Position numbers and translations under genes: made by a program
Assembly (NCBI RefSeq): GCF_900112255.1
Contig: NZ_FOLE01000004.1
Coordinates: 124,001-188,000 of the forward strand
Direction of reading: 5' to 3'
From: Flexibacter flexilis DSM 6793
Lineage (GTDB): Bacteria > Bacteroidota > Bacteroidia > Cytophagales > Flexibacteraceae
Length of the DNA: 64,000 nucleotides
The notes under the pieces: model-generated
Seen by the model: only the letters and a program-made list of their open reading frames with translations
Database searches by the model: none
What the model was told of the DNA's origin: nothing
In this document: piece by piece, positions 48,773-64,000 of the stretch
Layout of the letters: the number at the start of each line of letters is the position of its first letter
Numbering within the stretch: position 1 is the stretch's first letter

Positions 48773-51754
48773 ATGCTATCAACCTACAAAGAACAAGCTC
48801 TTGAATCGCTCATCGAAAAAGTTTTAACAGGCAGTTCGGCAGAAGAACGCAAGACAGGCCAAACACTTACCACCGAAATAGGCAACGGATTTGCAAGCGG
48901 CTCGCCTGCCCATTTCGACAAAAAATATGCCTTGGATACGGCGCACTTCTGGAATTTTTTGCAAACAACCCAAGCCAAAGAACTGGCCAAAGTGCAACGC
49001 GCCCCAGATTGGCAACTCAAAATATTGGAACGGTATGACCGTCTCGTCAAAAAATATGGCGTTTTGCGCGTACTCAAAAAAGGGTTGGAAGTAGATGATG
49101 CACACTTTACTTTATTTTATGAGTGGCCGAGTGCCAGTTCTGCCCAATCCATCAAAGATAATTTCGAGAAAAACCAATTTTCCGTAACTCGCCAGTTGCG
49201 TTATTCGCAGCTCCATGCGGGCGAGGAAATAGACATGGTTTTGTTTGTCAATGGGATACCCTTGCTCACGATGGAACTCAAAAACGCATGGACAGGCCAA
49301 ACCGCCGCCGTACAAGGACAAAAGCAATACAAAGAAACCCGCGATACCTCTCAAACGCTTTTTCAGTTTGGCCGCTGCTTGGTGCATTTCGCTGCCGACA
49401 CCGACGAAGTTTATATGACCAGCAAACTCGATGGCAAAAACACGTTTTTTCTTCCTTTCAACAAAGGCAACCATTTCGGAAAAGGCAATCCCGTAAACCC
49501 CAACGGCTTCAAAACGGCCTATTTGTGGGAGGAGATTTTTACCAAAAAAAGTTTGGCCACTATCATACAACATTTTGTACTACTCGACGGCAAAGAAAAT
49601 GAACCATTACCCAAAAAGCAGTTCATTTTTCCACGCTATCATCAGTTGGACGTAGTGAGCAAAATAATAGAAGATGTACGCGCCAAAGGCGTTGGCCAAA
49701 CCTATCTTATCCAACATTCGGCGGGGTCGGGCAAATCCAACTCTATTACTTGGACGGCCTTCCAACTCATTGAGGTAGAAGACAATACAGGCCGAAATCT
49801 TTTTGATACGGTCATTGTCGTAACCGACCGCCGCGTATTGGACAAGCAGCTACGCGACAACATCAAGCATTTTTCGGAAATCAAAAACATCGTAGGAGCG
49901 GCTTACACTTCGCAAGATTTGCGCTTGGCTCTGGAAGGTGGCAAACGCATCATCGTAACCACGATCCAAAAGTTTCCGCACATCGTCCATGATATTGGGG
50001 ATATGGCCGACAAGCGTTTTGCGGTGGTCATAGACGAAGCGCACAGCTCACAAGGCGGCACGGCCGCCGACACCATGAACGCCGTCATCGGGAAGTTGGA
50101 CACCAACGAAGAAGGCGAAATAGATACACAAGAATTTATTAATCAAGTAATGCTTGCCCGCAAAATGCGTAGCAATGCCTCTTATTTCGCTTTTACGGCC
50201 ACCCCCAAGCCCAGTACATTGGAGCGTTTCGGGCAGCCCAACGGCGCAGGCGGCTTTGAGCCATTTCATCTCTATTCTATGAAACAAGCCATAGAAGAAG
50301 GCTTTATTTTGGACGTATTGGCCAATTATACCACTTATGAGAGTTATTATCATCTGGAAAAATCCGTAGAAGACAATCCAGAATTTAATACCAAGAAAGC
50401 CCAAAAAGCCCTGCGTGCCTATGTCGAAAAAGACAAACGCACCATTACGGCCAAAGCCGAAGTGATGTTTGCGCATTTTATCCAAAATGTTTATGCCAAA
50501 AAGAAACTCGAAGGCAAGGCCAAAGGCATGGTTATTACCCAAAACATAGAATCGGCCATTCATTATTACACCGCCCTGAAAGAGCAACTGCACAAACACG
50601 GCAATCCGTTTGATATTATCATTGCTTTTTCGGGTAAAAAAGAACTACACGGCGTTACGTACACGGAAGCCAGCCTCAACGGTTTTGCCGATACGGAAAC
50701 CAAAGAGCAGTTCGACCAAGACCGTTACCGCCTCTTGGTGGTGGCCAACAAATACCTGACGGGCTTCGACCAACCCAAACTAAGCGTTATGTACGTGGAC
50801 AAAAAACTGGAGGGTGTTTTGTGCGTGCAAGCTCTTTCGCGCCTGAACCGCGCCGCACCGCGCTACAACAAACGTACCGAAGACCTTTTTGTCTTGGATT
50901 TTTTCAACGCCAGCCAAGACATCAAAAACGCCTTCGACTTGTATTACAGCTCTACCAGCCTACTGGAAGCCACCGACGTAAACGTATTGCACGACCTGAA
51001 AGACGCACTCGACGACTCAGGCGTTTATGAGCAATCCGAAATAACGCAGTTCAACGAATTGTTTTTCAGGCAAGAAGAAGGCGAAATAATTACCAGCCTC
51101 ATCGACACAGCCGCCGCACGCTTTAACGAAGAACTGTACCTCACCGACGACCAAAAAGCCGACCTCAAAGTAAAAGCCAAGCATTTTGTCAAAATATACG
51201 GGCAAGTAGCCGCCATTCTTAATTTTGAAAATATACGTTGGGAAAAACTTTTTTGGTTTCTTAAATTCCTGATTCCTAAAATGTTGGTTCGGAATGCCAG
51301 CAGCGAAATAGATGGGCTATTGGATGCAGTAGATTTGTCAACTTACGGCCTGAAACGCGTCAAACTCAACGAAAAAATAGCACTTGATGCCGCCGAAACT
51401 GTCTTGGATGCGGTAAGCTCCAACCCCAGAAGCGCACATAACGTAGAAGAAACAGAAGACTTAGAAACCATTCTTCAAAACTTCAACGAACATTGGTACA
51501 CGGGTTGGGACGCAACAGCCGAAGACAAACACGAAATCTTTACGTCGTTTACCAAACGCATCACCCAGCACCCCGACTTTACGACCAAATATCAAAACAA
51601 CACGGACGCTTATACGCGCGAGTTGGCCTTTAAAAAAATATTTGACGACGTAGCACACGCTTTGAGCAGACTCAATATTGATTTTGCCAAACAGCTTTTA
51701 GACGACCAGTTCAAACAAGATTTCAGGGATAGCGCGCAACGGCGTTTACGCTAA
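48773..51754 (+). CDS. hsdR: Type I restriction enzyme, endonuclease/translocase subunit
   Basis: The 993-residue HsdR has the PD-(D/E)xK nuclease motif in its N-terminal domain (Asp154 in EIDMVLFVNG, then MELKN with Glu168 and Lys170). The helicase part has Walker A SAGSGKS at 316-322, DEAH at 421-424, and later helicase motifs in FTATPKPSTLERFG and VQALSRLNRAAPRYNKRTED. With HsdM and HsdS it cuts unmodified DNA after ATP-driven translocation. All motifs are intact, so the system looks active. It is divergent from hsdM-hsdS across the 58-bp array. Confidence 0.95.
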   Translation: MLSTYKEQALESLIEKVLTGSSAEERKTGQTLTTEIGNGFASGSPAHFDKKYALDTAHFWNFLQTTQAKELAKVQRAPDWQLKILERYDRLVKKYGVLRVLKKGLEVDDAHFTLFYEWPSASSAQSIKDNFEKNQFSVTRQLRYSQLHAGEEIDMVLFVNGIPLLTMELKNAWTGQTAAVQGQKQYKETRDTSQTLFQFGRCLVHFAADTDEVYMTSKLDGKNTFFLPFNKGNHFGKGNPVNPNGFKTAYLWEEIFTKKSLATIIQHFVLLDGKENEPLPKKQFIFPRYHQLDVVSKIIEDVRAKGVGQTYLIQHSAGSGKSNSITWTAFQLIEVEDNTGRNLFDTVIVVTDRRVLDKQLRDNIKHFSEIKNIVGAAYTSQDLRLALEGGKRIIVTTIQKFPHIVHDIGDMADKRFAVVIDEAHSSQGGTAADTMNAVIGKLDTNEEGEIDTQEFINQVMLARKMRSNASYFAFTATPKPSTLERFGQPNGAGGFEPFHLYSMKQAIEEGFILDVLANYTTYESYYHLEKSVEDNPEFNTKKAQKALRAYVEKDKRTITAKAEVMFAHFIQNVYAKKKLEGKAKGMVITQNIESAIHYYTALKEQLHKHGNPFDIIIAFSGKKELHGVTYTEASLNGFADTETKEQFDQDRYRLLVVANKYLTGFDQPKLSVMYVDKKLEGVLCVQALSRLNRAAPRYNKRTEDLFVLDFFNASQDIKNAFDLYYSSTSLLEATDVNVLHDLKDALDDSGVYEQSEITQFNELFFRQEEGEIITSLIDTAAARFNEELYLTDDQKADLKVKAKHFVKIYGQVAAILNFENIRWEKLFWFLKFLIPKMLVRNASSEIDGLLDAVDLSTYGLKRVKLNEKIALDAAETVLDAVSSNPRSAHNVEETEDLETILQNFNEHWYTGWDATAEDKHEIFTSFTKRITQHPDFTTKYQNNTDAYTRELAFKKIFDDVAHALSRLNIDFAKQLLDDQFKQDFRDSAQRRLR

Positions 51755-51872
51755 AATATTTGCACTTACACGAATATTTGTGTTTACTTGCCCACTGATT
51801 TTGCAGTTTTAACCCCCAAAATAGCCTTTCGCGAGGCTTTTTTTAATCAAAGCACAACCATACTCAAAACCT

Positions 51873-53159
51873 ATGTCATTGATACTTATCAAAAACATCA
51901 AAACATTGTTGCAAGCACGAGACATTTCGTATGCAGCAGGCCAAAAAATGCGCGACATCGGCGCATTAGACGACGCTTTTTTGTTGATTGAAGGCGAAAA
52001 AATAGCCGATTTTGGCGCAATGGCAGACTTGCCACAGGCTTTAGCCAAATTAAATTTGACAGAAAAAGCACTGACCGAAATAGATGCCACAGGTCGCGTA
52101 GTTTCGCCTTGCTTTGCCGACTCGCACACACACATTGTCTATGCGGGCAGCCGCGAAAACGAGTTTGTGGATAAAATAAAAGGCCTTAGCTACGAGGAAA
52201 TAGCCAAACGTGGCGGCGGCATTCTCAACTCCGCCAAACGCCTGCAAGCCGCCACCGAAGATGAGCTTTACCAAGCAGCTTTGGGGCGCGTAAAAGAAAT
52301 GGTGGGCTATGGCATCGGGGCAATAGAAATAAAAAGCGGTTACGGGCTTACCGTCGCCGACGAACTGAAAATGTTGCGCGTGGTCAAACGCCTCAAACAA
52401 AACACACCCGTTACTATCAAATCCACGTTGTTGGCTGCGCACGCGTTGCCCGAATCCTACCGCAACCGCCGAGAAGATTTTATTTCGCTCATTATCAATG
52501 AAATGATTCCGCAAGCTGTGGCCGAAGGACTTGCCGATTATTGCGATGTTTTTTGTGATAAAGGATTTTTTACGGTAGAAGAAACAGCCCAAATTTTGGA
52601 AGCTGGCGCACGCTACGGCCTCAAACCCAAAATTCACGCCAACGAACTCGACTTTTCGGGAGGCATACAAGTGGGCGTAGCACACAAAGCCATTAGCGTT
52701 GACCATCTGGAATGTACGGGCGATGAAGAAATCGAGGTGTTGATGGAAAGCCACACCATGCCGACACTTTTACCCAGCACGGCGTTTTTCTTGCGTATCC
52801 CCTACCCGCCTGCCCGCCAAATGATAGATTCGGGTTTGCCTGTGGCCGTTGCCACCGACTACAACCCCGGCAGTTCGCCTTCAGGCAATATGTTGTTTGT
52901 ATTGAGTTTGGCCTGTTTGTACCTCAAAATGTTGCCAGAAGAAGCCCTCAACGCAGCCACTATCAACGGCGCACGCGCCCTTGAATTGGAAAGTTCGTTA
53001 GGTTCTATCAGCAAAGGAAAAATAGCCAACATCTTTATTACCAACCCAATATCTTCTTATACGTTTATCCCGTACTCGTTCGGGCAAGGCGGACAGCTCA
53101 TTGACACGGTGATTCTTCGCGGCCAAATCGTGAAAAAATCGGGTGTTGTTAGTTTTTAA
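51873..53159 (+). CDS. hutI: Imidazolonepropionase
   Basis: HutI hydrolyses 4-imidazolone-5-propanoate to N-formimino-L-glutamate in histidine degradation. The 428-residue amidohydrolase has the metal-binding SHTHIVYAGSRENEF (His85 and His87), GIGAIEIKSGYGL with the catalytic region, KIHANELDFSGGIQVGVAHK with further histidines, and TDYNPGSSPSGNML with the last Asp. No hutH or hutU lies in the window. The gene starts 118 bases after hsdR and ends at a strong terminator. Confidence 0.93.
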   Translation: MSLILIKNIKTLLQARDISYAAGQKMRDIGALDDAFLLIEGEKIADFGAMADLPQALAKLNLTEKALTEIDATGRVVSPCFADSHTHIVYAGSRENEFVDKIKGLSYEEIAKRGGGILNSAKRLQAATEDELYQAALGRVKEMVGYGIGAIEIKSGYGLTVADELKMLRVVKRLKQNTPVTIKSTLLAAHALPESYRNRREDFISLIINEMIPQAVAEGLADYCDVFCDKGFFTVEETAQILEAGARYGLKPKIHANELDFSGGIQVGVAHKAISVDHLECTGDEEIEVLMESHTMPTLLPSTAFFLRIPYPPARQMIDSGLPVAVATDYNPGSSPSGNMLFVLSLACLYLKMLPEEALNAATINGARALELESSLGSISKGKIANIFITNPISSYTFIPYSFGQGGQLIDTVILRGQIVKKSGVVSF

Positions 53160-53166
53160 TTACAAT

Positions 53167-53212
53167 AAAAAAAACACCTATAAGCGAAACGACACTTATA
53201 GGTGTTTTTTTT
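53167..53212. terminator. Bidirectional terminator between hutI and the permease gene
   Basis: AAAAAAAACACCTATAAG at 53167-53184 pairs with CTTATAGGTGTTTTTTTT at 53195-53212. It lies between convergent genes. Confidence 0.92.
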
Positions 53213-53224
53213 ATTGAGAAAAAC

Positions 53225-54544
53225 TTATTTCTTTTTCCGCAACAATGCGTACAATATCAAGCCTAAAGCCAATGTAGCCAATCCGTAGAGCGATTCGGTG
53301 GTTTTGTCGCGGAAAATAAAAAACAGCGTCCAGAGCGTAAGTCCCAAGAAAATAATGGGCGTAACAGGATAGCCCCAAGTGCGGTACGGACGCGGCAAGT
53401 CGGGGCGGCGCACACGCAACACAAACAAACCCAACACCGACAAAAACGTAAACAAACTCAACACAAAGCCCGAATAGGTCAGCACGGCCTCAAACGAGGA
53501 AGTAAAAATAAAAAACAACGTAAGCCCAGACTGAAATAATGTGCCATTGAGCGGAATGTTACGGACGTTGCGACGCGCCAACCAACCCAAGGGCGGCAAA
53601 TCTTCGCCCATCGTCTGCACCACGCGCGGCCCTGCAAAAATCATGGCACTAATCGTGGATACCAGCAGCAACGAAATGAGCAAGCCCATCATTTTGCCAC
53701 CTGTTTCCCCAAAAATATAACCTGCGGCCACATAACCAACTTCGGGTTTGCCAGCCATCGCCGAAAGCGGCGCAACGTACAAAAACGAAAAATTGAGCAC
53801 CACATACAGCAGCATGACGGCCACCGTACCCGTCAGCAACGCACGCGGCAAATTGCGTTGCGGTTCGCGGATTTCGCTGCTAATGTAGGCGGCAGCATTC
53901 CAACCCGAATACGCATAAGACACATAAATCAACGATACGGCAAACGACGGGCTCAAAATGGCCTGCCAGTCCGTAGCCTGTGGCGGAAATAAACTAAACG
54001 ATTGATGTACAGGTGTATAAAACAAAGCTGCTCCAATAAAAAATAAAATGAGCATTACTTTGATGGAAGTAGAAAACAACTGAAAATAGCCGCCAACTCG
54101 CACGTTGGTGATGTGAATGAACGTGACCAAAATCACCACCGTAGCGGCCAAATATTGTTCGTTAAGCTCAGGAATAACACTTTGTGCGTACTTGCCCAAA
54201 GCCATCGCCGCCAAAGCCGTAGGCGCAGCAAAACCCACCGTAGCCGACACCCAACCCGACAAAAAGCCCAAAGCAGGGTGATAAATTTTGCTCAAATAAT
54301 GGTACTCACCCCCCGAACGCGGCAGCGTAGCGGCCAATTCGCCATAACTCAACGCACCGCACAGCGCAATAAGTCCGCCCACCACCCACAAAGCCAGTAG
54401 CGCAAAATACGATTGGATTCCCAAAATCTGATAGCCCAAACTCGTAAATACACCCGTCCCGACCATGTTGGCCACCACCAAAGAAGTAGCCGTATAAACC
54501 GAAATTTTATGTTTGTTGTCTTGTTGTAATTCCACTCCCGCCAA
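53225..54544 (-). CDS. Amino acid permease (APC superfamily)
   Basis: The 439-residue membrane protein has about twelve hydrophobic segments and the start SVYTATSLVVANMVGTGVFT with the GxG substrate motif of APC transporters. GELAATLPRSGGEYHYLSKI is also typical. Members carry amino acids or polyamines across the cytoplasmic membrane. The substrate is not set, though placement opposite hutI hints at histidine or a related compound. The C-terminus is basic (LLRKKK). Confidence 0.87.
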   Translation of the reverse strand: MAGVELQQDNKHKISVYTATSLVVANMVGTGVFTSLGYQILGIQSYFALLALWVVGGLIALCGALSYGELAATLPRSGGEYHYLSKIYHPALGFLSGWVSATVGFAAPTALAAMALGKYAQSVIPELNEQYLAATVVILVTFIHITNVRVGGYFQLFSTSIKVMLILFFIGAALFYTPVHQSFSLFPPQATDWQAILSPSFAVSLIYVSYAYSGWNAAAYISSEIREPQRNLPRALLTGTVAVMLLYVVLNFSFLYVAPLSAMAGKPEVGYVAAGYIFGETGGKMMGLLISLLLVSTISAMIFAGPRVVQTMGEDLPPLGWLARRNVRNIPLNGTLFQSGLTLFFIFTSSFEAVLTYSGFVLSLFTFLSVLGLFVLRVRRPDLPRPYRTWGYPVTPIIFLGLTLWTLFFIFRDKTTESLYGLATLALGLILYALLRKKK

Positions 54545-54612
54545 AGGTTTTGTTTGTGCTTAATGAATAATTCTTTTAACCCTATACGATTTCGTTAAAA
54601 CCGTATAAACCA

Positions 54613-54634
54613 TGGTCTGTGTCCTCACAGACCA
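54613..54634 (-). terminator. Hairpin after the cvfB gene
   Basis: TGGTCTGTG at 54613-54621 pairs with CACAGACCA at 54626-54634 around a four-base loop. It lies 48 bases beyond the cvfB stop on the minus strand. No T tract follows, so it may be a dispersed repeat rather than a true terminator. Confidence 0.5.
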
Positions 54635-54681
54635 CATTTTGCCGCCATCTATATTGGCTTGGTTCAGGCTCAATAACAATG

Positions 54682-55533
54682 TTATTCTTCCGAAATATCC
54701 AACAGTCGTAGGCCGTCGGCTTCCAAGCGTACCATTTGTTTTTTGTACAATGCGCCAACGGCTTTTTTGAATGTTTTTTTGCTCATGCCCACCCACTCAT
54801 AAATTTTAGTGGGGTCGGTTTTGTCGGTCAGGGGCAAAAAGCCGCCCGCCAATTGCAACTCGCCCAGTAGTTTGGTGGTGGCCACTTCCACTTCGTCGTA
54901 GCCTTGTTTTTGCAAAGTCAAATCTATTTTGCCATCAGGACGTATTTTTTTGATATAGCCTTGCAAATGGTCGCCAATATTCACCGCCGCAAACACTTCA
55001 TTGGCGTACAACACGCCCCAATGCGCGTGATTGATAATGGCTTTATAACCCAAGTCGGTACGTTGGGCAATGAGTAAACTTACTTGCTCGCCTTCCTCCA
55101 AAGTCATTTCGTTGTCACGCAAAAAATGGTCTATGCGTGCGCTGCCGATAATACGCTGCGTTTGTTCGTCGATGCCGATATGCACCAAATAAAAACGGCC
55201 AGTTACCATTTTTTGGCTTTGCTCCCGAAACGGAACAAACAAATCTTTGGGCAAACCCCACGCCAAAAACGCGCCGATGGGCGTTACTTGCACCGCTTCC
55301 AAATAAGCAAATTCGCCTACAATGGCTTCGGGGTGTAGCGTAGTGGCCACGAGGCGGTCTTCTGAGTCGCGGTAAATAAACACTTCGAGCCAGTCGTCGA
55401 TGCCCATTTCGTCGGTCAAGTATTGGAGCGGCAACAAAATTTCGCCTGCTTCGCCGCCATCAAGGTAAAGGCCAAAGTCCACGAACTTGACCACGCGTAA
55501 GCGGTTGTATTGACCTAATTGTATGTTAGTCAT
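54682..55533 (-). CDS. cvfB: CvfB family S1-like RNA-binding protein
   Basis: The 283-residue protein has repeated S1-like beta-barrel domains (LRVVKFVDFGLYLDGGEAGE, VQVTPIGAFLAWGLPKDLFV and YIKKIRPDGKIDLTLQKQGY) and a C-terminal winged-helix domain (KTFKKAVGALYKKQMVRLEA), as in CvfB/YitL. In Staphylococcus this RNA-binding protein affects virulence gene expression. The role in Bacteroidota is untested. It is upstream of the permease gene on the same strand and has a hairpin after it. Confidence 0.87.
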   Translation of the reverse strand: MTNIQLGQYNRLRVVKFVDFGLYLDGGEAGEILLPLQYLTDEMGIDDWLEVFIYRDSEDRLVATTLHPEAIVGEFAYLEAVQVTPIGAFLAWGLPKDLFVPFREQSQKMVTGRFYLVHIGIDEQTQRIIGSARIDHFLRDNEMTLEEGEQVSLLIAQRTDLGYKAIINHAHWGVLYANEVFAAVNIGDHLQGYIKKIRPDGKIDLTLQKQGYDEVEVATTKLLGELQLAGGFLPLTDKTDPTKIYEWVGMSKKTFKKAVGALYKKQMVRLEADGLRLLDISEE

Positions 55534-55701
55534 GCTTTACTATTCGATTAAAAGTATTTGCTTGTGCTTTCAAAAATAAAAAGCGTTGTTCGGAATACTC
55601 CAAAAAACGCTTCTGTATCTTTTGTTTTCAAGCCTGCGAAATTAACGGTTTTAAGGTACACAGACAAATATTCTAACCATAAACAATCCTCATATTTATG
55701 T

Positions 55702-55733
55702 TTTGTTTAAATTCGCGACCAAATTTACTTTGC
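55702..55733 (+). promoter_or_regulatory. Candidate promoter of the TonB-dependent receptor gene
   Basis: TTTG at 55702-55705 and TACTTTGC at 55726-55733 are spaced by 20 bases, close to -33 TTTG / -7 TAnnTTTG with two mismatched bases. It would give a leader of about 65 bases before the ATG at 55802. A second -7-like box, TACATTTG at 55790, is too close to the start. Confidence 0.4.
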
Positions 55734-55801
55734 AAAGATAAAGCGCAATCAAAAAAACAAAATATACAATTTATCTTATTTTTCATTTTTACATTTGCTA
55801 A

Positions 55802-58063
55802 ATGTTTCAATCAGTACAGCCTTACAAACTTATCTTATTCCTACTTTTTTTCTTTAGCCATTCATTTGTTTTTGGGCAAAATAACAGCCTTTATGTGCTG
55901 GACAGCACCACCAAAATACCCGTACAATTTGCTGTTGTGCAAAGTCAAGACCTCAAATTTAGCCAAACCACCGACGAAAACGGCTTTGTGAGTTTGAACA
56001 AATTGCCCGAAAATACGCGCCGCCTTGTGGTAAGTCGTGTCGGATTTCAGGCCAAAACTATTGACATGAAAGAGCTTATCACTTCAAAATCAATGGTTTA
56101 TTTGCAGCCCAAAATCACAAGTTTGTCGGAAGTGGTCATCAACGCCAGTGCCAACAACGGCATTTTCAAAACCATCAGCGATTTGGATATTCATTTGCGC
56201 CCCATCAACAACTCCCAAGAAGTGTTGCGCATGGTGCCAGGGTTGTTTATTGGCCAACACGCAGGCGGCGGCAAAGCCGAACAGATTTTTTTGCGCGGTT
56301 TTGACCTCGACCACGGCACAGACATCAATATTTCGGTGGACGGAATGCCCGTAAACATGGTAAGCCATGCGCACGGACAAGGCTACGCCGATTTGCATTT
56401 TGTGATACCAGAACTCATTGAAAATGTGAATTTTAACAAAGGCCCTTATTTCGCCGATAAAGGCAATTTCACGACGGCAGGTTTCGTGGAGTTCAAAACC
56501 AAAGATTATCTGGAAAATAATTTTGTGAAAGCTGAAGGCGGCCAATTCAACACGTTTCGGGGCATTGCGGGCATTAATTTGCTCAAAACGCAACCCGACC
56601 GCCGCGACCAAAGTTTGTACATGGCCACCGAAGCCTCCTACACTAAAGGTTATTTTACTGAATCTCAAAACTTTAGACGCTTCAATGGCGTATTGAAATA
56701 TCACGGAAAACTCAGCCCAAATCATTCGTTTTCGGCGACGGCCACAGGTTTTACAAGCCAATGGTTAGCCTCTGGCCAAATTCCTGAGCGTGCCGTAAAA
56801 GCCAACCTGATTGGTTGGTACGGTGCCATAGACCCCAACGAAGGTGGCCAAACTTCGCGCTACAATGCCAATGTGGAGCTGCTAAGCCACTTAAATAATG
56901 GCGCGACGTGGCGCAACCAACTGTATTACAGCAAATATTTGTTTGAACTGTATTCTAATTTTACTTTTTACAAAGAAGACACTGTCAATGGCGACCAAAT
57001 TCGGCAAAAAGAAAACCGCAATATTTGGGGCTATAACAGTACTTACCAACATCAACACGCCGTCGGCACGCTGTTGGCCGAAACCAAAGCAGGCGTACAA
57101 GTGCGCTACGATGATATAAATAATTTGGAATTGAGCCGCACCAAAGACCGCACCATTAACACCCAAAACATGATGTTTGGCGATGTACGCGAACTAAACG
57201 CAGCGGCTTATGTGTCTGAAAAAGTGTCGGTTACTGACCAACTCGACGTTACGGGGGCTTTGCGTTTTGACTATTTTCGCAACCACTACGCCGACCATTT
57301 GGCAGACACGACGATGTCGTCTAACTCGAATTTTATTTCTCCAAAACTCAATTTTAACTATCGCCTCAACGACAACTTGCAGTTGTATTGGTACAATGGG
57401 CGCGGTTTTCATAGCAACGACACGCGCGTAGCCGTGCAACAAAACGGAAAAAAAGTATTGCCGCCAGCCTACGGTACGGATTTGGGAATGGTGAAAAAAT
57501 TGGGTAAAAAATTCTTTTTGCAAACAGCGATTTGGTATTTGTGGCTCGACCAAGAATTTGTGTATGTGGGCGATGAAGGCGTAGTGGAAGCAGGTGGCCA
57601 AACGCGCCGTTTTGGCTTGGACGTGTCGGCCAGATACGAGATAATCAGCAACTTATACGCAGATTTGGAACTGAGTTTGGCCAATCCTCGCGCCTTAGGC
57701 GTGGCACACAGCGAAAGTTATTTGCCTTTAGCTCCACGCGTTACGAGTGTGGGCGGGCTTACTTATCGCCAGCGCAAAGGCTGGAACGGTAGTTTGCGTT
57801 ACCGCTATATGGCCGACCGCCCCGCCAACGAAACCAATACGGTAGTGGCTGAAGGTTATTGGGTGGTAGATGCCGCCGCCAACTACACTACGCAGCGTTG
57901 GGAAGCAGGACTTTCTATCCAAAACTTACTGAATACCAAGTGGAAAGAGACACAATTCGACACGGAAAGCCGCTTACAAAACGAACCTGCCGCCGTGTCC
58001 GAAATTCACTTTACAGCAGGTACGCCATTTTTTGCAAGGCTTAACTTGACGGTGTTTTTTTAG
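55802..58063 (+). CDS. TonB-dependent outer-membrane receptor with CarboxypepD-type N-terminal domain
   Basis: The 753-residue protein starts with a signal peptide (YKLILFLLFFFSHSFVFG). A carboxypeptidase-regulatory-like domain follows at about 28-105 (LDSTTKIPVQFAVVQSQDLK to MVYLQPKITSLSEVVINA), then the plug domain (QEVLRMVPGLFIGQHAGGGK, FLRGFDLDHGTDINISVDGM, HGQGYADLHF), and the beta-barrel to the final aromatic (RLNLTVFF). It imports a ligand across the outer membrane with TonB energy. The ligand is unknown and no SusD partner is present. Its last four bases overlap the convergent prmC end. Confidence 0.88.
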   Translation: MFQSVQPYKLILFLLFFFSHSFVFGQNNSLYVLDSTTKIPVQFAVVQSQDLKFSQTTDENGFVSLNKLPENTRRLVVSRVGFQAKTIDMKELITSKSMVYLQPKITSLSEVVINASANNGIFKTISDLDIHLRPINNSQEVLRMVPGLFIGQHAGGGKAEQIFLRGFDLDHGTDINISVDGMPVNMVSHAHGQGYADLHFVIPELIENVNFNKGPYFADKGNFTTAGFVEFKTKDYLENNFVKAEGGQFNTFRGIAGINLLKTQPDRRDQSLYMATEASYTKGYFTESQNFRRFNGVLKYHGKLSPNHSFSATATGFTSQWLASGQIPERAVKANLIGWYGAIDPNEGGQTSRYNANVELLSHLNNGATWRNQLYYSKYLFELYSNFTFYKEDTVNGDQIRQKENRNIWGYNSTYQHQHAVGTLLAETKAGVQVRYDDINNLELSRTKDRTINTQNMMFGDVRELNAAAYVSEKVSVTDQLDVTGALRFDYFRNHYADHLADTTMSSNSNFISPKLNFNYRLNDNLQLYWYNGRGFHSNDTRVAVQQNGKKVLPPAYGTDLGMVKKLGKKFFLQTAIWYLWLDQEFVYVGDEGVVEAGGQTRRFGLDVSARYEIISNLYADLELSLANPRALGVAHSESYLPLAPRVTSVGGLTYRQRKGWNGSLRYRYMADRPANETNTVVAEGYWVVDAAANYTTQRWEAGLSIQNLLNTKWKETQFDTESRLQNEPAAVSEIHFTAGTPFFARLNLTVFF

Positions 58064-58932
58064 CATTTTTGCCCATAAACCAAACGGTCTTTGCCGCGCA
58101 TATCTTGCTGTATTACAATATTTTCAAAACCATGTCCGCGCAAACAAGCCGCCGTTTGGGGGGCAAACTGTTCGTTTATTTCCAAGAAAATATAACCTTG
58201 CGGTTTGAGCAAATACGCAGCAGCTTGCGCCAATGCCTCATAAAATAAAAGCGGCTGTTCGTCGGGCACAAACAAGGCTGTTTCGGGTTCGTAATCCAGC
58301 ACATTGGGGCGCATTTGGGATTTTTCGGCCAGCGTAATGTACGGCGGATTGCTCACCAACAAATCCAAACTTTCGGGCGCAAGTGCCTTTTGCCAATCTT
58401 CGGGATTTAGAATATCCGTTTGCCGAAACGTAACAGTTGCGTTATTGCGGGCAGCGTTGCGGGTTGCCGTTTCTAAGGCTTTGGGGCTAATATCCCAAGC
58501 GTAAGTTTGCGCCTGTGGCCAATGAGCCGAGAGCGTAACGGCAATGCAGCCGCTCCCCGTTCCCACGTCCAAAAGCGTTTGGGGTGGCGTTTGTTTTTTG
58601 TACTTCTGCAAGATAGTATAAACAATTTCTTCTGTTTCGGGGCGCGGAATAAGCGTCGCTTCGTTTACTTCAAACACCAGCCCATAAAACTCAGTTTCTC
58701 CCAACACATATTGTATGGGTTCGTGACGCAAAAGCCGCGCTAATGCCGTTTGTATTTCCTGAATTACAGCGGTTTGTATTGCTATTTCTTTGCGTAAAAT
58801 AGCATCTTGTTTGCGCACGTGTGCGTAATGTTCCAGCAACCACCAAGCCATTGTATCCGCTTCGGGCGTGGGATAAATGCTTTGCAAAGCCTGCGAATAT
58901 TGTTGATGTAAATCAGAAATGAGTACAGCCAT
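58060..58932 (-). CDS. prmC: Peptide chain release factor N5-glutamine methyltransferase
   Basis: PrmC (HemK) methylates the Gln of the GGQ motif in release factors RF1 and RF2. The 290-residue protein has an N-terminal helical domain, EPIQYVLGETEFYGLVFEVN with LIPRPETEEIV, the SAM-binding DVGTGSGC at 122-129 and the catalytic NPPY at 195-198. It has standard length. It is downstream of DUF2490, 11 bases apart, in a probable operon. Confidence 0.93.
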   Translation of the reverse strand: MAVLISDLHQQYSQALQSIYPTPEADTMAWWLLEHYAHVRKQDAILRKEIAIQTAVIQEIQTALARLLRHEPIQYVLGETEFYGLVFEVNEATLIPRPETEEIVYTILQKYKKQTPPQTLLDVGTGSGCIAVTLSAHWPQAQTYAWDISPKALETATRNAARNNATVTFRQTDILNPEDWQKALAPESLDLLVSNPPYITLAEKSQMRPNVLDYEPETALFVPDEQPLLFYEALAQAAAYLLKPQGYIFLEINEQFAPQTAACLRGHGFENIVIQQDMRGKDRLVYGQKC

Positions 58933-58943
58933 TGACTTGTCGG

Positions 58944-59732
58944 TTATTGTATAATATTGCTATCTGTGCTATTGATGTGCCAACGCAACATCAGGCCATA
59001 AATGGGCGTAATGCGATTCAGATTATAAGTTTCGGGCGTAACGGGCGGCGGGTTGCTGGTAACCAATGCCTTGAGGTAATCGGTTTGGCGCATGGCAAAC
59101 ACCGACAACAACACTTTAGGCGAAACGGGATATTGTGCCATCAGGCGCAAGCGCGTGCGGTCGATGCGGCGGCGTTCTTGGGTTTTGTCGTAGTCGTCTT
59201 CGCGATATTTAAAAAATTCGGCGGAAGCCACCACATTTAGTTTATGTTTGGCCGTAATGCGAAACTGCCGCGAAAGCCCCAGCCACAACCGAAATCGCCA
59301 AGACGAAACCGTCTTTTCGTTGGTCGGGACGCGCCTGTCGGCCATCAAAGTTTTGGTAAATAAAACGCTGCCTATTTTGCCGCGATGCGTGGCATAGCCT
59401 CTGTAAACCTGTAAGTTAAAGCTTTGCATATACGCCCAACGATAGCCCAAACCCCAAGACCAATGCTCATTGATGGGCTTTTCGTAGGTCAGGCCAGTTT
59501 GGAGGCGCAAAAACTGATTGGTCGGAAATTTTTTATCAAAATTATAATCCGAATCCACAGAACTGCGCGTCTGTTGCTCAAAAATCAAAACGGCTTTGTC
59601 TTTGAATTGATAATCGGCTTGCCAATACGTCCAGTATTGCGTAGGCAAATAGGTTTTTACGGTGCTCTGCGCCAATGCGTTACTTGCCGCAACGACCGCC
59701 CAAAGCAACAGCCAAAGAATAGTTTTTTTCAT
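58944..59732 (-). CDS. DUF2490 outer-membrane-like protein
   Basis: The 262-residue protein has a signal peptide (MKKTILWLLLWAVVAASNALAQ, so the cleavage is near residue 22). It follows the DUF2490 pattern of strands with alternating aromatic and polar residues: QYWTYWQADYQFKDKAVLIF, SVDSDYNFDKKFPTNQFLRL and SWRFRLWLGLSRQFRITAKH. DUF2490 proteins are thought to be small outer-membrane barrels, function unknown. The ATG at 59732 is preferred over one 21 bases upstream because it begins a good signal peptide. Confidence 0.8.
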   Translation of the reverse strand: MKKTILWLLLWAVVAASNALAQSTVKTYLPTQYWTYWQADYQFKDKAVLIFEQQTRSSVDSDYNFDKKFPTNQFLRLQTGLTYEKPINEHWSWGLGYRWAYMQSFNLQVYRGYATHRGKIGSVLFTKTLMADRRVPTNEKTVSSWRFRLWLGLSRQFRITAKHKLNVVASAEFFKYREDDYDKTQERRRIDRTRLRLMAQYPVSPKVLLSVFAMRQTDYLKALVTSNPPPVTPETYNLNRITPIYGLMLRWHINSTDSNIIQ

Positions 59733-60005
59733 ATCCTTACAGAAAGTACGCAAAGATAAAAGGAAAGTTGAGCTTTGGCACTAAGGCCACCCACAAGCAA
59801 TTTACAAAATGACAGGATTGACAGAGCGATTCTGTGGTTTTTGCGCCACTATCTTAAAATAAAATATAAAATTGTTTGCAAGTATCCTTTGAATTTAGGA
59901 TTTTGCAGTGATAAATTGCCGTAAGGTTGGTTTGTGGGGGGGTTAGCTGTTATACGAAGGAAAATATTGGACAACTCAAACAGAGTAATTAGTAGAATTA
60001 AAATC

Positions 60006-60013
60006 TAATTTTG
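60006..60013 (+). promoter_or_regulatory. Promoter -7-like box TAATTTTG
   Basis: TAATTTTG matches TAnnTTTG and lies 28 bases before the ATPase gene start at 60042. No TTTG at 19-21 bases upstream was seen. Confidence 0.4.
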
Positions 60014-60041
60014 TACAAAAAACGATTAAATCCAGTTAATT

Positions 60042-61658
60042 ATGTTTTTAAAAAAAGTATTTATTAATAAATATAAAGTATTAAAAGAAATTTCTATCAA
60101 TTTTGAGAGAAAAAAAGGTTATTCTGTATTTCCAATAATAAGTGAAAACGGAGGAGGTAAGAGCACTCTATTGCAAATTATCTTTTCTTTTCTACATTTA
60201 GCTTTTGTGCCTAATAGACAAAAGTATTTAATAAAAATGCTTGAGTTTTATAATTCTAAAATAAAGAATGATGAACTTATCAATGTCATAAACTTTGAAT
60301 TAGAATACAATAAAAAAGATATTTATATTGATTTTTTCTACTGCAGGAGTAATTATAAAAAACTTAATTTCAATTCAATTGTAGAATTAAGAGAACTTGA
60401 AAATAAAAAGGAGCTATTAAGAAATACGATAAAGGATATTGAATTGCTAAATAATATTGAAACAGATTTGCAAAATTCAAATATTTCTAACATGATGGTT
60501 TGGAGGGAATTATCTAGATTTTGTCAAAGTCACCGCGAGGAAGAACGCTTAAGAACTGGGGATACAAAATTTCTATTGAGTTTTATAAACAATACACGAA
60601 CAAAGCTTGAACGTTCTTTAATTAGCGATGATGAAATTAATACTCAAATAATAAAGGCTGAAGCAGAACGGAACAAACTATACGAAGAATTAAAAAAGGA
60701 AGATTTGTTTTATGCTTTCCACTTTAATCAAAATAATGATGTGCTTTTATATCGATCAAGTAGTGATATAGAGACACTTACAAATATTTCTAACCAAACA
60801 TATTTAGCAACTCCCAATACTCAAGTTTTACAATTTCTAAAAGATGAACAATTATCTTCTTTGTTTACTAAAGACAAGTATATTTATAGTACTTATGATT
60901 ACTTTATCAGAGAGTGCCAACAAGATATTGAAGGTTTATTTACCTATGATTTCTCCGCTATTAATTTAATACTTGAAGTTTTTCAAAAAGCAAGAGATAA
61001 TGACTTTAGAAAGGCATTGGAGACTGGAGAATATGGAAATCAAATCAAGTCTACTAGAGAGGAATTGAATGGTTTATTATTGGGAAAATCAATAACTATT
61101 GATAATAGTTTTAAAGGAGTAACCTTTAGTACAATTGATTCAAATCTTACATTAAGCCCTAAAGATTTAAGTCATGGAGAATTAAAGAAATTAAGTATAT
61201 ATATTTGGTTGAAAGCTAAAACACAAGATGATTCATTAATTCTAATGGATGAAGTTGATATGGGTTTACATCCTACGTGGCAGCATGAGCTACTAGATGA
61301 TTTACAAAAGTGGACTAATGGAAATCAGTTTATATTAGCAACCCATTCACCACAAATAATCAGCAAATCCTATTACAAAAATATTGTTGTGATAAAAAGA
61401 ACTATAGGAGGTGCAACTTCAGAACAGTTTAATCACGCTCCATTAGAAAGTGATTTGAATACAATAGTAAAAACTATAATGGGTGGAGAATATATTCCGA
61501 AGGAACTTTCTGAGCTTAGAAAAAAATACAGAACTTTATTTGAAGAAGGTAAAATTGATTCTGATGAAGCCAAAGAGATAAAAAATAAGATATTAATCTA
61601 CGAAAGTGAAAACTCATCTTTCTTTCAAGATATTAAATTTCAAATTTCTTTAAAGTAA
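60042..61658 (+). CDS. AAA/ABC-type ATPase of a Septu-like (PtuA-like) cassette
   Basis: The 538-residue ATPase belongs to the SMC/RecF-like AAA proteins of defense systems. Walker A is ENGGGKST at 35-42, with a non-standard preceding residue where the first Gly of GxxGxGKS is expected. The ABC-signature-like LSHGE is at 376-380, Walker B LILMDEVD at 399-406 and the switch ATHSP at 433-437. The middle part has coiled-coil-type charged helices (residues about 115-215). The gene is strongly AT-rich relative to its neighbours, a sign of transfer. It overlaps the next gene by one base (TAATG), so the two act together. OLD-type Toprim residues were not found. Confidence 0.8.
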   Translation: MFLKKVFINKYKVLKEISINFERKKGYSVFPIISENGGGKSTLLQIIFSFLHLAFVPNRQKYLIKMLEFYNSKIKNDELINVINFELEYNKKDIYIDFFYCRSNYKKLNFNSIVELRELENKKELLRNTIKDIELLNNIETDLQNSNISNMMVWRELSRFCQSHREEERLRTGDTKFLLSFINNTRTKLERSLISDDEINTQIIKAEAERNKLYEELKKEDLFYAFHFNQNNDVLLYRSSSDIETLTNISNQTYLATPNTQVLQFLKDEQLSSLFTKDKYIYSTYDYFIRECQQDIEGLFTYDFSAINLILEVFQKARDNDFRKALETGEYGNQIKSTREELNGLLLGKSITIDNSFKGVTFSTIDSNLTLSPKDLSHGELKKLSIYIWLKAKTQDDSLILMDEVDMGLHPTWQHELLDDLQKWTNGNQFILATHSPQIISKSYYKNIVVIKRTIGGATSEQFNHAPLESDLNTIVKTIMGGEYIPKELSELRKKYRTLFEEGKIDSDEAKEIKNKILIYESENSSFFQDIKFQISLK

Positions 61659-62302
61659 TGAAGTATATTAAAAAAAAAGAAGCACCTGAATTCTTTATTA
61701 CTGACGTTATGGGTTTGTCAAAATGGAGTGAATATGATTCAAAAAAGAAGAAACGTTTAAAGAAATATATTCTTGAAAATGAACAATCACATCTTTGTTG
61801 CTACTGTGAAAAATTAATAACGGAAGACAAAACAATGTCCCATGTAGAACATGTTAAACCCAAGAGTATAGATTTACATGCCTTAACCTTTGATTATTCC
61901 AATCTATTGGTCTCTTGTGAAGGTAATCATTTTAATGAGATTGGCGATAATAGTAGATATACTTGTGGTCAGATAAAAGGACAAGATTTTGACGAAAAAA
62001 AGTTTCTAAATCCTACATTAATTCACGACATATCATCATATTTTAAGTTTGACATAGAAACAGGTTTAATATCTTCTTCTGGGAAAAATAATGTAAATGC
62101 TGAATTTACGTACAAAATTTTAAATCTTAATGGGTATAATAATCGTTTAGCAGAAGCAAGAAAGATTGCCAAAGATTCTTTGATTAGGAATTTCTCGCAG
62201 ATTCCTTTAGATAACAGAAAAGTTATGCTTAAAAACTATTTATCTAATGACAGTAATGAATTTATAACATTCTTAAGGTATGTGTTTAGAGACTACATTT
62301 AA
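61658..62302 (+). CDS. HNH endonuclease of a Septu/retron-associated type (PtuB-like)
   Basis: The 214-residue protein has the zinc/HNH arrangement CCYCEK near residues 47-52, HVEHVKPKS at 62-70 with the catalytic His, YSNLLVSC at 80-87 and TCGQIKG at 102-108. This is the pattern of the HNH proteins that accompany retron and Septu ATPases (TIGR02646-like). It is AT-rich like the ATPase gene and translationally coupled to it. The pair probably cuts DNA or RNA on phage infection, which is inference from the family. No reverse transcriptase is present. Confidence 0.82.
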   Translation: MKYIKKKEAPEFFITDVMGLSKWSEYDSKKKKRLKKYILENEQSHLCCYCEKLITEDKTMSHVEHVKPKSIDLHALTFDYSNLLVSCEGNHFNEIGDNSRYTCGQIKGQDFDEKKFLNPTLIHDISSYFKFDIETGLISSSGKNNVNAEFTYKILNLNGYNNRLAEARKIAKDSLIRNFSQIPLDNRKVMLKNYLSNDSNEFITFLRYVFRDYI

Positions 62303-62400
62303 ACTACAATACATATATCGTATTGGCGAAATGGCGAGCCTATATGCAAATATCTGAGCTCACCCATCTTTACTAGACAACCAACACATCTTCCATAAAA

Positions 62401-62438
62401 ACAAAAGAGGCTGCCCCCAATGGAGTAGCCTCTTTTGT
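62401..62438. terminator. Bidirectional terminator between the HNH gene and DUF1572
   Basis: ACAAAAGAGGCT at 62401-62412 pairs with AGCCTCTTTTGT at 62427-62438, followed by T residues. Confidence 0.88.
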
Positions 62439-62454
62439 TTTTACATCAACGCAT

Positions 62455-63021
62455 TTATTTTTTACCCAAAAACTCATCTGTAAAATGTTGGCGGTGCTTG
62501 TCTTCCGCAAATTTGGCGGCGTTATAATCCGTTGATTTGCCGCGCGGAATACTCAAACTTTGCCAATCGTTTTGGGTCAGCATTTTAGACAAAAACACGA
62601 TTTGGCCTACGTGATACGCATAATGTCCCAATTGCCGATTCACGGCCTCCAGCACCGTGTGCGCCTGATTGCGAATATAGACCAAATCCGATATGTTTTC
62701 GGGCTTGATTTGGGCTAATGCCTCGAATAACACTGCCCAACCTTCCTCCCATTTTTGCCACAGCTCGGCGGGCGTGGCAATGTCATTTTCAAATTCGGCC
62801 TCGCGGTTACGCCATGTTTTTTCGCCGTCTTCCGTCAAGAAATTAGTCCAACGCGAGAGCATATTCCCCCACAAATGCTTGACAATGACAGCAATACTGT
62901 TACTTTCTGCACTTAGCACAGCAAACAAATTTTGGTCGCTGACCTGTTTCATGGATTTTTCACCCAACATTTTATAGTACCTGAACAGCTCCGTTACGCT
63001 ATGGATATAATTTTCTTGCAT
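62455..63021 (-). CDS. DUF1572/DinB-like protein
   Basis: The 188-residue protein has the DUF1572 pattern: NSIAVIVKHLWGNMLSRWTN with the first histidine, TPAELWQKWEEGWAVLFEAL, and VNRQLGHYAYHVGQIVFLSK with the other metal histidines, followed by SIPRGKS. It is a DinB-related putative metal protein of unknown activity. It is on the same strand as the PEBP gene upstream, 13 bases apart, so they are likely co-transcribed. Confidence 0.83.
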   Translation of the reverse strand: MQENYIHSVTELFRYYKMLGEKSMKQVSDQNLFAVLSAESNSIAVIVKHLWGNMLSRWTNFLTEDGEKTWRNREAEFENDIATPAELWQKWEEGWAVLFEALAQIKPENISDLVYIRNQAHTVLEAVNRQLGHYAYHVGQIVFLSKMLTQNDWQSLSIPRGKSTDYNAAKFAEDKHRQHFTDEFLGKK

Positions 63022-63034
63022 GGCTTTTGTATTT

Positions 63035-63577
63035 TTAGCGTTTGTAATGGAAAATTAAAGAGGCTTTTTCGATGGTATTGGCGTTAAGATAATAACCCAC
63101 CATCGCAGGCGACGCACTCGACGAAAGACCTAATTTTTCGATTTTGAGGGCGTAAACTGTTACGATATAGCGATGAAACCCGTGGCCTTCTGGCGGGCAA
63201 GGGCCGCCGTAACCAGATGTACCAAAGTCAGTTATGCCTTGAATCGCCGAAGCAGGCAAATGCTTTTTGTCGGGCGTACCTGCACCACTTGGCAAGCTGC
63301 TCAACGTAGCGGGAAGGTCAAAAACCACCCAATGCCACCAGCCGCTACCCGTTGGCGCATCGGGGTCATATACCGTAATGGCAAAACTTTTTGTGCCTTG
63401 CGGCGCATTTGACCACGAAAGTTGAGGCGACATATTTTTGCCCGTACAGCCAAACGAATTAAACACTTGTTTGTCAGTGGCTTGTCCGCCCAAATCATCA
63501 CTTTTCAGGGTAAAAGTTTGTGCCTGAACAGCATATGACATCAGCCACATCACGAGCAATAAAGATACTTTTTTCAT
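63035..63577 (-). CDS. Secreted YbhB/YbcL-type PEBP family protein
   Basis: The 180-residue protein has a signal peptide (MKKVSLLLVMWLMSYAVQAQ) and the PEBP/Raf-kinase-inhibitor-like fold: FGCTGKNMSPQLSWSNAPQG, TKSFAITVYDPDAPTGSGWW and GPCPPEGHGFHRYIVTVYAL, the DPDAP and GPCPP motifs being typical. In bacteria these are small periplasmic proteins of unknown ligand. It is upstream of DUF1572 in a probable two-gene unit. Confidence 0.88.
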   Translation of the reverse strand: MKKVSLLLVMWLMSYAVQAQTFTLKSDDLGGQATDKQVFNSFGCTGKNMSPQLSWSNAPQGTKSFAITVYDPDAPTGSGWWHWVVFDLPATLSSLPSGAGTPDKKHLPASAIQGITDFGTSGYGGPCPPEGHGFHRYIVTVYALKIEKLGLSSSASPAMVGYYLNANTIEKASLIFHYKR

Positions 63578-63676
63578 AAAATTAAACTTTGGTTTGTTGA
63601 ATAATTATAAGGCAAAAGTAGTGTACTAATAGCTGTGAGCGTTATCGCTGTTGTTTCAAAAAATGTTGCCAAAAGG

Positions 63677-64000
63677 TCAATTATCAGAGTTTTGGAAACG
63701 CTTGGGCGTATAGCCATAATGTTGCTTGAAAGATTGGATAAAACCCGACAACGTATCAAAGCCCACTTCCAAATAAATATCGCTGGGGCGGCTTTGGCCA
63801 GACTTGAGCAAATACGCAGCTTTGGCCAAACGCTGCTGCACAAACCAAACATTAGGCGAGGTATTATATACTTTCAGAAATTTACGTTTGAAGGTAGAGG
63901 CACTCATATTGCACAAAAAGGCCAGTTCCTCGATGGTGAGTTTATTAAAAACATTGCGTTCTACCACATGGCGAAACACCATATTTTCGTCCGTTTGGCG
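63677..64000 (-). CDS. AraC-family transcriptional regulator, N-terminus cut by window edge
   Basis: The reverse frame is open from base 64000 to the stop at 63677, and the codons before the ATG at 63982 are also open, so the true start is outside. The visible 108 residues are the AraC DNA-binding domain: LTIEELAFLCNMSASTFKRK is the first helix-turn-helix and RPSDIYLEVGFDTLSGFIQS is the second. The sensor domain cannot be seen. It lies upstream of the PEBP-DUF1572 pair in the same orientation, 99 bases before the PEBP start. Confidence 0.85.
   Translation of the reverse strand, partial: RQTDENMVFRHVVERNVFNKLTIEELAFLCNMSASTFKRKFLKVYNTSPNVWFVQQRLAKAAYLLKSGQSRPSDIYLEVGFDTLSGFIQSFKQHYGYTPKRFQNSDN

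What the first reader, a model, noticed from the sequence alone, without database searches (positions are those of the whole stretch)
60042..62302. Compact ATPase/HNH defense cassette without reverse transcriptase, inserted in a conserved neighbourhood
The AT-rich pair has a RecF/SMC-like ATPase (Walker A with a missing first Gly, LSHGE, DEVD, ATHSP) coupled by a one-base overlap to a CYC/HNH endonuclease of the retron-Septu type. The surrounding genes have core composition, so it looks like a transferred island. The ATPase differs from PtuA in length and Walker A and has an unusual charged middle, so it may be a new subtype.
Basis: partly seen in the sequence, partly recalled or inferred. Interest (0 to 1): 0.6.

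Follow-up and report, generated by a model that had tools for sequence, protein, structure and literature searches.

The report
Retron-free Septu pair, long-armed PtuA branch
Two adjoining genes encode an ATPase and a nuclease of the known Septu phage-defence type, from an uncharacterised branch whose ATPase carries an extra helical arm; a modest extension of a known system, not a new one.

Summary
Profiles, solved sequences and predicted folds rank PtuA and PtuB first. No reverse transcriptase was found in the window or in the 80 related loci fetched (many with short flanks), so it files as Septu type I, not retron I-A. 'New subtype' is partly right: with ten of those loci the pair forms one branch (support 100/100 ATPase, 100/99 nuclease) from Bacteroidota and Campylobacterota. 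Eight members have a long ATPase. In the seven of these with a readable P-loop, serine replaces the first glycine (0 of 39 readable rows outside the branch), and the query's model has a charged helical arm of about 110 residues between Walker A and signature. Three short sisters match a PADLOC PtuA1 model strongly, one of them nearly end to end, tying the branch to Septu. Expected catalytic residues are present. 'Conserved neighbourhood' is not supported: the two nearest flanking genes are not found together in relatives. Phage defence, target (tRNA or DNA) and the arm's role are untested.

The parts
60042..61658 (+). ptuA-like gene: 538-aa ABC/SMC-type ATPase of Septu type I, long-armed branch
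   Evidence: ORF; PADLOC PtuA1 4.3e-28; AAA_21 and AAA_15 over Pfam cut-off; best solved-sequence match Septu PtuA 8ee4, 5e-11 for the query alone and 1e-16 for the branch profile; AlphaFold2 pLDDT 88.9 and VIA Z about 22 to PtuA chains
60141..60164 (+). Walker A S34-ENGGGKS41, first Gly replaced by Ser
   Evidence: Ser in 7 of 7 readable long-branch rows, 0 of 39 readable rows outside the branch
60372..60707 (+). charged helical arm, residues 111-222, between Walker A and signature
   Evidence: AF2 helices 111-144, 150-160, 164-172, 175-191, 196-219, block pLDDT 92-97; 38% charged, least conserved of five regions; no Pfam match on residues 111-231 alone
61167..61253 (+). signature LSHGE (376-380) to Walker B LMDE (401-404)
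   Evidence: S377, G379, D403, E404 invariant in the 51-row alignment; positions
61599..61640 (+). C-terminal tail YESENSSFFQDIKF (520-533), a marker of the 11-member branch
61658..62302 (+). ptuB-like gene: 214-aa HNH endonuclease (TIGR02646)
   Evidence: PADLOC PtuB1 7.7e-46; TIGR02646 72.8 bits over cut-off 52.15; no Pfam match; VIA Z 19.6 to Septu PtuB 8eea_G
61841..61903 (+). HNH active-site stretch H62-V-E-H65 to N82
   Evidence: E64, H65 and N82 invariant in 52 of 52 rows, H62 in 48 of 52
62396..62443 (.). inverted repeat (22-nt arms, 91% complementary, 4 nt between) with T/A-rich ends between the convergent ptuB and DUF1572 genes; probable shared terminator
   Evidence: role inferred
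60006..60013 (+). TAATTTTG, resembling the Bacteroidota -7 element TAnnTTTG (motif recalled); weak
   Evidence: present in 14% of shuffles, and no -33 partner in range

Best explanation
A Septu type I anti-phage operon (ptuA-ptuB without a retron) from a distinct, uncharacterised branch in which PtuA has gained a helical arm. Proposed working: PtuA monomers dimerise through their ABC heads around ATP (K40, S377/G379, D403/E404, H435) and assemble with the PtuB HNH nuclease (H65, N82, probable Cys4 zinc site) into an inactive complex. Phage infection changes the ATP- or ligand-bound state of PtuA, and PtuB then cuts a nucleic acid, either tRNA as in Septu EcB88 or nicked DNA as reported for Septu of E. 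coli ATCC 25922, stopping phage production. The arm probably extends the head like an SMC/Rad50 arm and modulates sensing or oligomerisation. SHOWN HERE: gene pair, homology, motif residues, predicted folds, branch, no RT found beside it. INFERRED: phage defence, complex formation, trigger, target, role of the arm.
For: PADLOC PtuA1 (PDLC00271 4.3e-28) and PtuB1 (PDLC00332 7.7e-46). TIGR02646 over cut-off. Solved chains by sequence: query alone finds Septu PtuA first (8ee4, 5e-11) and Septu PtuB first (8ee7, 3.8e-9); the branch-only ATPase profile finds Septu PtuA first (1e-16), AriA next family (1.3e-10); wider profiles, made mostly of typical relatives, find PtuA chains at 1.7e-73 to 5e-101 against 1.9e-24 for AriA and only PtuB/retron-HNH chains, 10 of 10 at E <= 1e-5. 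AF2 models pLDDT 88.9 and 93.3. VIA: ATPase Z 22.0 (9e90_A, rmsd 7.5, 355 aligned) and 21.7 (8eea_C, rmsd 6.9, 362 aligned), tied; HNH Z 19.6 (8eea_G, rmsd 2.8, 201 aligned), first non-PtuB 5.4. The same 11 rows form a branch in both trees, 100/100 and 100/99. Genes adjoin in 11 of 11 and their ends overlap in 10 of 11. Three of three short sisters match PtuA1 PDLC00289 at 3.9e-83, 2.5e-63 and 4.2e-60. No RT hit in the window or 80 loci with a profile that finds 12 of 12 left-out RTs. Septu EcB88 needs both ATPase and HNH residues (PMC13096335, passages).
Against: No experiment on any member of the branch was found. By sequence the ATPase link to PtuA rests mainly on the C-terminal third: the best stretches of the three top PADLOC models span residues 391-534 (PDLC00289's spans 173-535), the branch profile's margin over AriA is only about six orders of magnitude, and identity to PtuAs outside the branch is 14-22%. 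Whole-ATPase superpositions have high rmsd (about 7 A), and Foldseek TM-scores of the 50 rows shown reach only 0.45 by query and 0.52 by target length, so domain arrangement and arm differ. AriA (Z 18.7) and SMC/Rad50 heads (Z about 17) also match, so the fold alone is not specific. Only 46 of 80 loci have at least 3.5 kb before the HNH start and 2 kb after its end, so an RT further out could be missed; 5 of the 9 genomes behind the ten branch relatives hold an RVT_1 match somewhere.
Confidence: 0.85

Rival explanations
1. It is a retron I-A (Septu type II) effector pair that lost its reverse transcriptase, or whose RT and msDNA act from elsewhere in the genome.
For: HNH_I-A and ATPase_I-A PADLOC models also match (2.7e-33, 2.5e-22). 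The genome has one RT-like gene on another contig. 5 of the 9 genomes behind the ten branch relatives hold an RVT_1 match somewhere.
Against: No RT hit in the window or in the 80 related loci (flanks short in part). 4 of those 9 genomes have no RVT_1 match at all, though they may be incomplete. The pair lacks the roughly 45-65-residue N-terminal extension of retron PtuA (PDB matches begin at chain residue 45-66 against residue 1 here and in Septu 8ee4). The own genome's RT-like gene is RT_UG31 of the DRT class (5.4e-92), not called a retron RT. In the HNH tree the branch groups with E. coli Septu (96/86), not with retron Ec78; but that Septu row is flagged as long, the root is a midpoint, and Ec83 PtuB was not included. 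In the ATPase tree the branch stands apart from both Septu and retron references.
Confidence: 0.05
2. It works as a PtuAB-like complex but the enlarged ATPase has switched role, for example sensing a phage protein through its arm, much as AriA binds Ocr (PDB titles), with a target other than those known for Septu.
For: The arm is the least conserved of five regions (0.34 mean pairwise identity in 6 of 8 long rows, against 0.47-0.64), as expected of a sensor under an arms race. AriA is among the good structural matches, Z 18.7 over 273 residues.
Against: A purely structural coiled arm would also be poorly conserved. The catalytic core and nuclease are Septu-like.
Confidence: 0.2
3. An inactive or non-defence remnant: P-loop Ser and AT-rich decay.
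For: First Walker A Gly replaced; GC far below surroundings.
Against: Both frames are open. The other expected catalytic residues are invariant or nearly so in relatives and present here. The Ser is shared by 7 of 7 readable long-branch rows. Low GC is shared: 10 of 10 branch relatives' pairs have lower GC than their flanks, two of them by under 0.015. E. coli Septu PtuA has Ala at this position.
Confidence: 0.04

Closest known systems
Septu type I of E. coli (PtuA 8ee4 / PtuB 8ee7, 8eea)
   Same: ABC ATPase and HNH nuclease of the same families; predicted folds match over the whole length (Z 21.7 and 19.6); a non-Gly first P-loop residue (Ala there, Ser here)
   Different: PtuA 465 aa against 538; here a helical arm 111-222 (336 residues between Walker A Lys and signature against 244); signature LSHGE against LSDGL; PtuB here keeps four Cys, of which 8ee7 lacks at least two in the printed alignment
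Retron I-A effectors PtuAB (Ec78/Eco7, Ec83/Eco4)
   Same: Same ATPase and HNH families; PtuB four-Cys pattern also in Ec78
   Different: No RT found beside the pair, no Rfam match nearby, no N-terminal extension; under the NCBIfam retron Ec78 PtuA/PtuB cut-offs (80.1 of 500 and 95.8 of 150 bits)
PADLOC PtuA1 model PDLC00289, as matched by the short sisters L036, L039, L040
   Same: Same 100/100 branch in the ATPase tree; shared C-terminal tail ES.NSSF.Q and the DLNTIVKTIMG-like block
   Different: Sisters have a core of about 350-376 aa, Gly in the P-loop, and 145-171 residues between Walker A and signature against 336-350
AriA of PARIS
   Same: Same ABC/SMC head fold (Z 18.7)
   Different: AriA's partner AriB is a Toprim nuclease (PMC12409363, abstract start in the listing), here HNH; weaker profile match

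Membership tests
Septu type I | PtuA-family ABC ATPase | tested here: met
   (sequence link mainly C-terminal)
Septu type I | PtuB-family HNH nuclease with intact H and N residues | tested here: met
Septu type I | the two genes adjoin | tested here: met
   adjoining in 11 of 11 branch members
Septu type I | no reverse transcriptase gene beside the pair (type II has one before ptuA; PMC8565338, passages) | tested here: met
   0 hits in the window and in 80 loci, control 12 of 12
Septu type I | protects against phage | not testable with these tools
   -
Retron I-A / Septu type II | RT gene preceding ptuA | tested here: not met
Retron I-A / Septu type II | msr-msd RNA | tested here: inconclusive
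   no Rfam match at gathering score in 50000-64000; upstream fold z -1.55
Retron I-A / Septu type II | NCBIfam equivalog cut-offs for Ec78 PtuA and PtuB | tested here: not met
PARIS (AriA) | AriB Toprim partner | tested here: not met
   the adjoining partner is HNH

The most novel reading that the evidence does not exclude
The long-armed branch is a self-sufficient Septu subtype in which the helical arm of PtuA is the phage sensor, binding a phage protein or nucleic acid directly and so doing the job that the RT-msDNA does in retron I-A; arm variation would then set phage specificity.
Probability: 0.15. Interest if true: 0.55.

Novelty: new variant of a known kind. Interest (0 to 1): 0.3.

Why it matters
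What triggers stand-alone Septu, and why relatives cut tRNA or DNA, was not settled in the passages read here. A branch that keeps the PtuAB core but adds a separable, variable arm, with short-armed sisters as natural controls, gives a clean comparison (long arm, short arm, arm removed) for finding which part of PtuA senses infection.

Tried and rejected
Empty site: only the two nearest neighbours, the DUF1572 and DUF2490 genes, were sought, in 29 genomes including its own. 8 of 29 and 4 of 29 hold them; both occur only in G000 and G450, and in G450 on different contigs. So no empty site can be read and 'conserved neighbourhood' is not supported.

Flanking direct repeats: the longest is 6 nt, below the shuffle mean of 7.6. 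No tRNA in the window. No Rfam hit at 50000-64000. The upstream 288 nt do not fold unusually (z -1.55). The query's upstream 300 nt had no blastn match among the five branch members compared; the only pair found was L032 with L034, 35 nt on opposite strands. Integrases or transposases were not searched for as such; the four nearest flanking genes are none.

Mobile carriers: tblastn of the ATPase gave 27 plasmid and 5 phage records, none covering 80% of the query and all under 60% identity. The viral-contig scan with the HNH protein found no relative. Frequency: 1 of 395 class genomes, its own, matches the long-branch ATPase profile at E <= 1e-30 (three candidates scored in each row shown). 24 of 395 phylum genomes hold some PtuB homologue; 1 of 11 family genomes, its own.

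Bacteroidota promoter (motif recalled): only a -7-like match, found in 14% of shuffles. Profile-profile comparison of the long branch with sisters and typical PtuAs aligned only the C-terminal part, so the edges of the insertion rest on the AF2 model. In one search the signature distances of L034 (103), L082 (319, on SLGE) and possibly others are pattern mis-hits; L034's true LSHGE is. L035 is truncated at its contig start and has no readable P-loop. Start codons of L040 and L048 may be set too far upstream.

Sampling: 198 loci encoded a relative and only the best 80 were kept. ATPase set 73 of 80 loci after dropping two rows under 300 aa, two loci without a hit and three near-duplicates; 50 of 73 ATPases and 51 of 77 HNHs were aligned with the query. 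PADLOC was run on 7 of 10 branch ATPases and 3 of 10 branch HNHs, and on 10 chosen neighbour genes of six branch loci. The Pfam RT search took 35 of the 80 loci, in 34 genomes, 20 of which have a match somewhere. Region conservation used 6 of 8 long rows.

Literature: the papers on the E. coli PtuAB oligomer (PMC12318543) and Retron-Eco7 structure (PMC12673091) are not held. What I say of PtuAB assembly and ATP control is recalled. Five paper searches listed no title or abstract on this branch; that is not proof of absence.

Full report
Observation. The pair is 27.6% GC; none of 578 equal windows elsewhere in the 64 kb is as low. The four nearest flanking genes are ordinary: a PrmC-like methyltransferase and a DUF2490 protein to the left, a DUF1572/DinB-like protein and a phosphatidylethanolamine-binding-family protein to the right. 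Between the convergent ptuB and DUF1572 genes lies a strong inverted repeat at 62396-62443, a likely shared terminator.

Identity. PADLOC names both genes: PtuA1 4.3e-28 and PtuB1 7.7e-46. The HNH protein passes the TIGR02646 cut-off; both fall well short of the retron Ec78 equivalog cut-offs. Among solved sequences, the query ATPase alone finds Septu PtuA first (8ee4, 5e-11) and the HNH protein finds Septu PtuB first (8ee7, 3.8e-9). The profile of the eight long-branch ATPases finds Septu PtuA first at 1e-16, with AriA next at 1.3e-10, the matched stretch lying in the C-terminal part. Wider profiles, in which 40 of 51 ATPase rows are typical PtuAs from outside the branch, find PtuA chains at 1.7e-73 to 5e-101 and AriA at 1.9e-24, and only PtuB/retron-HNH chains, 10 of 10. 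AlphaFold2 models are confident (pLDDT 88.9 and 93.3). VIA ranks PtuA chains first (Z 22.0, 9e90_A, rmsd 7.5, 355 aligned; 8eea_C Z 21.7, rmsd 6.9, 362 aligned; tied) and PtuB chains first (8eea_G Z 19.6, rmsd 2.8, 201 aligned), the first non-PtuB at Z 5.4. The ATPase's high rmsd, and Foldseek TM-scores of at most 0.45 by query length, show that the arrangement differs around a shared head; AriA (Z 18.7) and SMC/Rad50 heads (about 17) match too. The nuclease partner is what makes the PtuA call firm.

Reverse transcriptase. A profile from 12 RTs, which finds each of 12 when left out, finds none in the window or in the 80 related loci. Of these, 46 have at least 3.5 kb before the HNH start and 2 kb after its end. 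The genome's only Pfam RT match is below cut-off and on another contig; PADLOC calls it RT_UG31 of the DRT class. Of the 9 genomes behind the ten branch relatives, 5 hold an RVT_1 match somewhere and 4 none. PADLOC's scheme calls RT-less pairs Septu type I and RT-bearing ones type II, equal to retron I-A (PMC8565338, passages).

A distinct branch. A scan of genome contigs kept 80 of 198 related loci. Ten of them, with the query, form one branch in both trees: ATPase 100/100, HNH 100/99. The ten come from Bacteroidota (Saprospiraceae, Bacteroidales, Chitinophagales and one unplaced) and Campylobacterota (Arcobacteraceae, Sulfurovaceae). The two genes adjoin in 11 of 11; the ends overlap by one base in 6 and by four in 4, and L048 has a 10-base gap. 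The same branch in both trees suggests joint inheritance. In 10 of 10 relatives the pair has lower GC than its flanks, in L035 and L040 only slightly. Eight members have a long ATPase. In the 7 with a readable P-loop the first Gly is Ser; in the 3 short sisters it is Gly; in 39 readable rows outside the branch it is Gly in 38 and Ala in one. The distance from the Walker A Lys to the signature is 336-350 residues in 6 of the 7 readable long rows (L034 mis-scored by the script), 145-171 in the sisters, and mostly about 190-265 outside, except five Bacteroidota/Ignavibacteriota rows of 613-624 aa with their own large insertion (402-409 in four; L082 mis-scored). In the query's model most of the excess is a helical arm (helices 111-144, 150-160, 164-172, 175-191, 196-219). 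It is 38% charged and the least conserved of five regions, 0.34 mean pairwise identity in 6 of 8 long rows against 0.47-0.64. The short sisters match PtuA1 model PDLC00289 at 3.9e-83, 2.5e-63 and 4.2e-60; for L036 one match runs from model position 1 to 382 of 404, for the other two the match is in two stretches. That ties the branch to Septu. The root of the ATPase tree is a midpoint, for drawing only, so 'sister to all other PtuA' is not claimed; the ATPase reference rows are flagged as long.

Integrity and mechanism. In the 51-row alignment S377, G379, D403, E404 and H435 of the ATPase are invariant and K40 nearly so. E64, H65, N82 and Cys 47/50/87/103 of the HNH protein are invariant in 52 of 52 rows. 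In Septu EcB88, Walker and HNH mutants abolish immunity, and infection triggers cutting of tRNA-Tyr in its variable loop (PMC13096335, passages and section 8). Retron-Eco7 PtuAB also depletes tRNA-Tyr, while Septu of E. coli ATCC 25922 is reported to target nicked DNA and retron-Eco4 likely does not target tRNA (PMC11555353, passages and Discussion). The target of this branch therefore cannot be told from homology. The best reading is an ATP-controlled PtuA-PtuB complex that releases nuclease activity on infection; complex, trigger and the arm's role are inferred.

Setting. The pair was found in 1 of 11 family genomes, its own, and its ATPase profile in 1 of 395 class genomes at E <= 1e-30, which fits horizontal gain. 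But no empty site, flanking repeat, tRNA or plasmid/phage copy was found. 'Transferred island' is likely from composition and distribution; 'inserted in a conserved neighbourhood' is not shown.

Verdict. A Septu type I pair of an uncharacterised, well-supported, long-armed PtuA branch. A new variant of a known kind, of modest interest.

Noticed in passing
L031 694-2250 (-), own genome contig C5 191384-191752: The genome's only RVT_1-like frame (519 aa) matches PADLOC RT_UG31 (DRT class) at 5.4e-92, a separate defence-type reverse transcriptase on another contig than the pair.
   Followed up: partly
L040 2798-11428: In an Arcobacter MAG the branch's ptuAB pair lies between a Cas8b gene and, three genes on, a Cas3b gene of a type I-B CRISPR locus.
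   Followed up: no
L040 4532-4938: The L040 PtuA frame has about 135 extra N-terminal residues without a Pfam match or a significant solved-sequence match (best E 0.18); possibly an extra domain or a start codon set too far upstream.
   Followed up: partly
L065, L068, L082, L087, L108: A second group of long PtuAs (613-624 aa), typical in P-loop, with about 400 residues between Walker A and signature in the four rows scored correctly; a large insertion that appears independent of the query's.
   Followed up: partly
L033 2554-4380: A Bacteroidales branch member sits next to a type IIG restriction-methyltransferase gene (1.6e-168).
   Followed up: no
L050 6704-7816: Beside a typical ptuAB pair in Halomonas lies a gene matching HEC-01A (1.2e-122); a 370-aa frame at the same place recurs in L051 and L052.
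   Followed up: no
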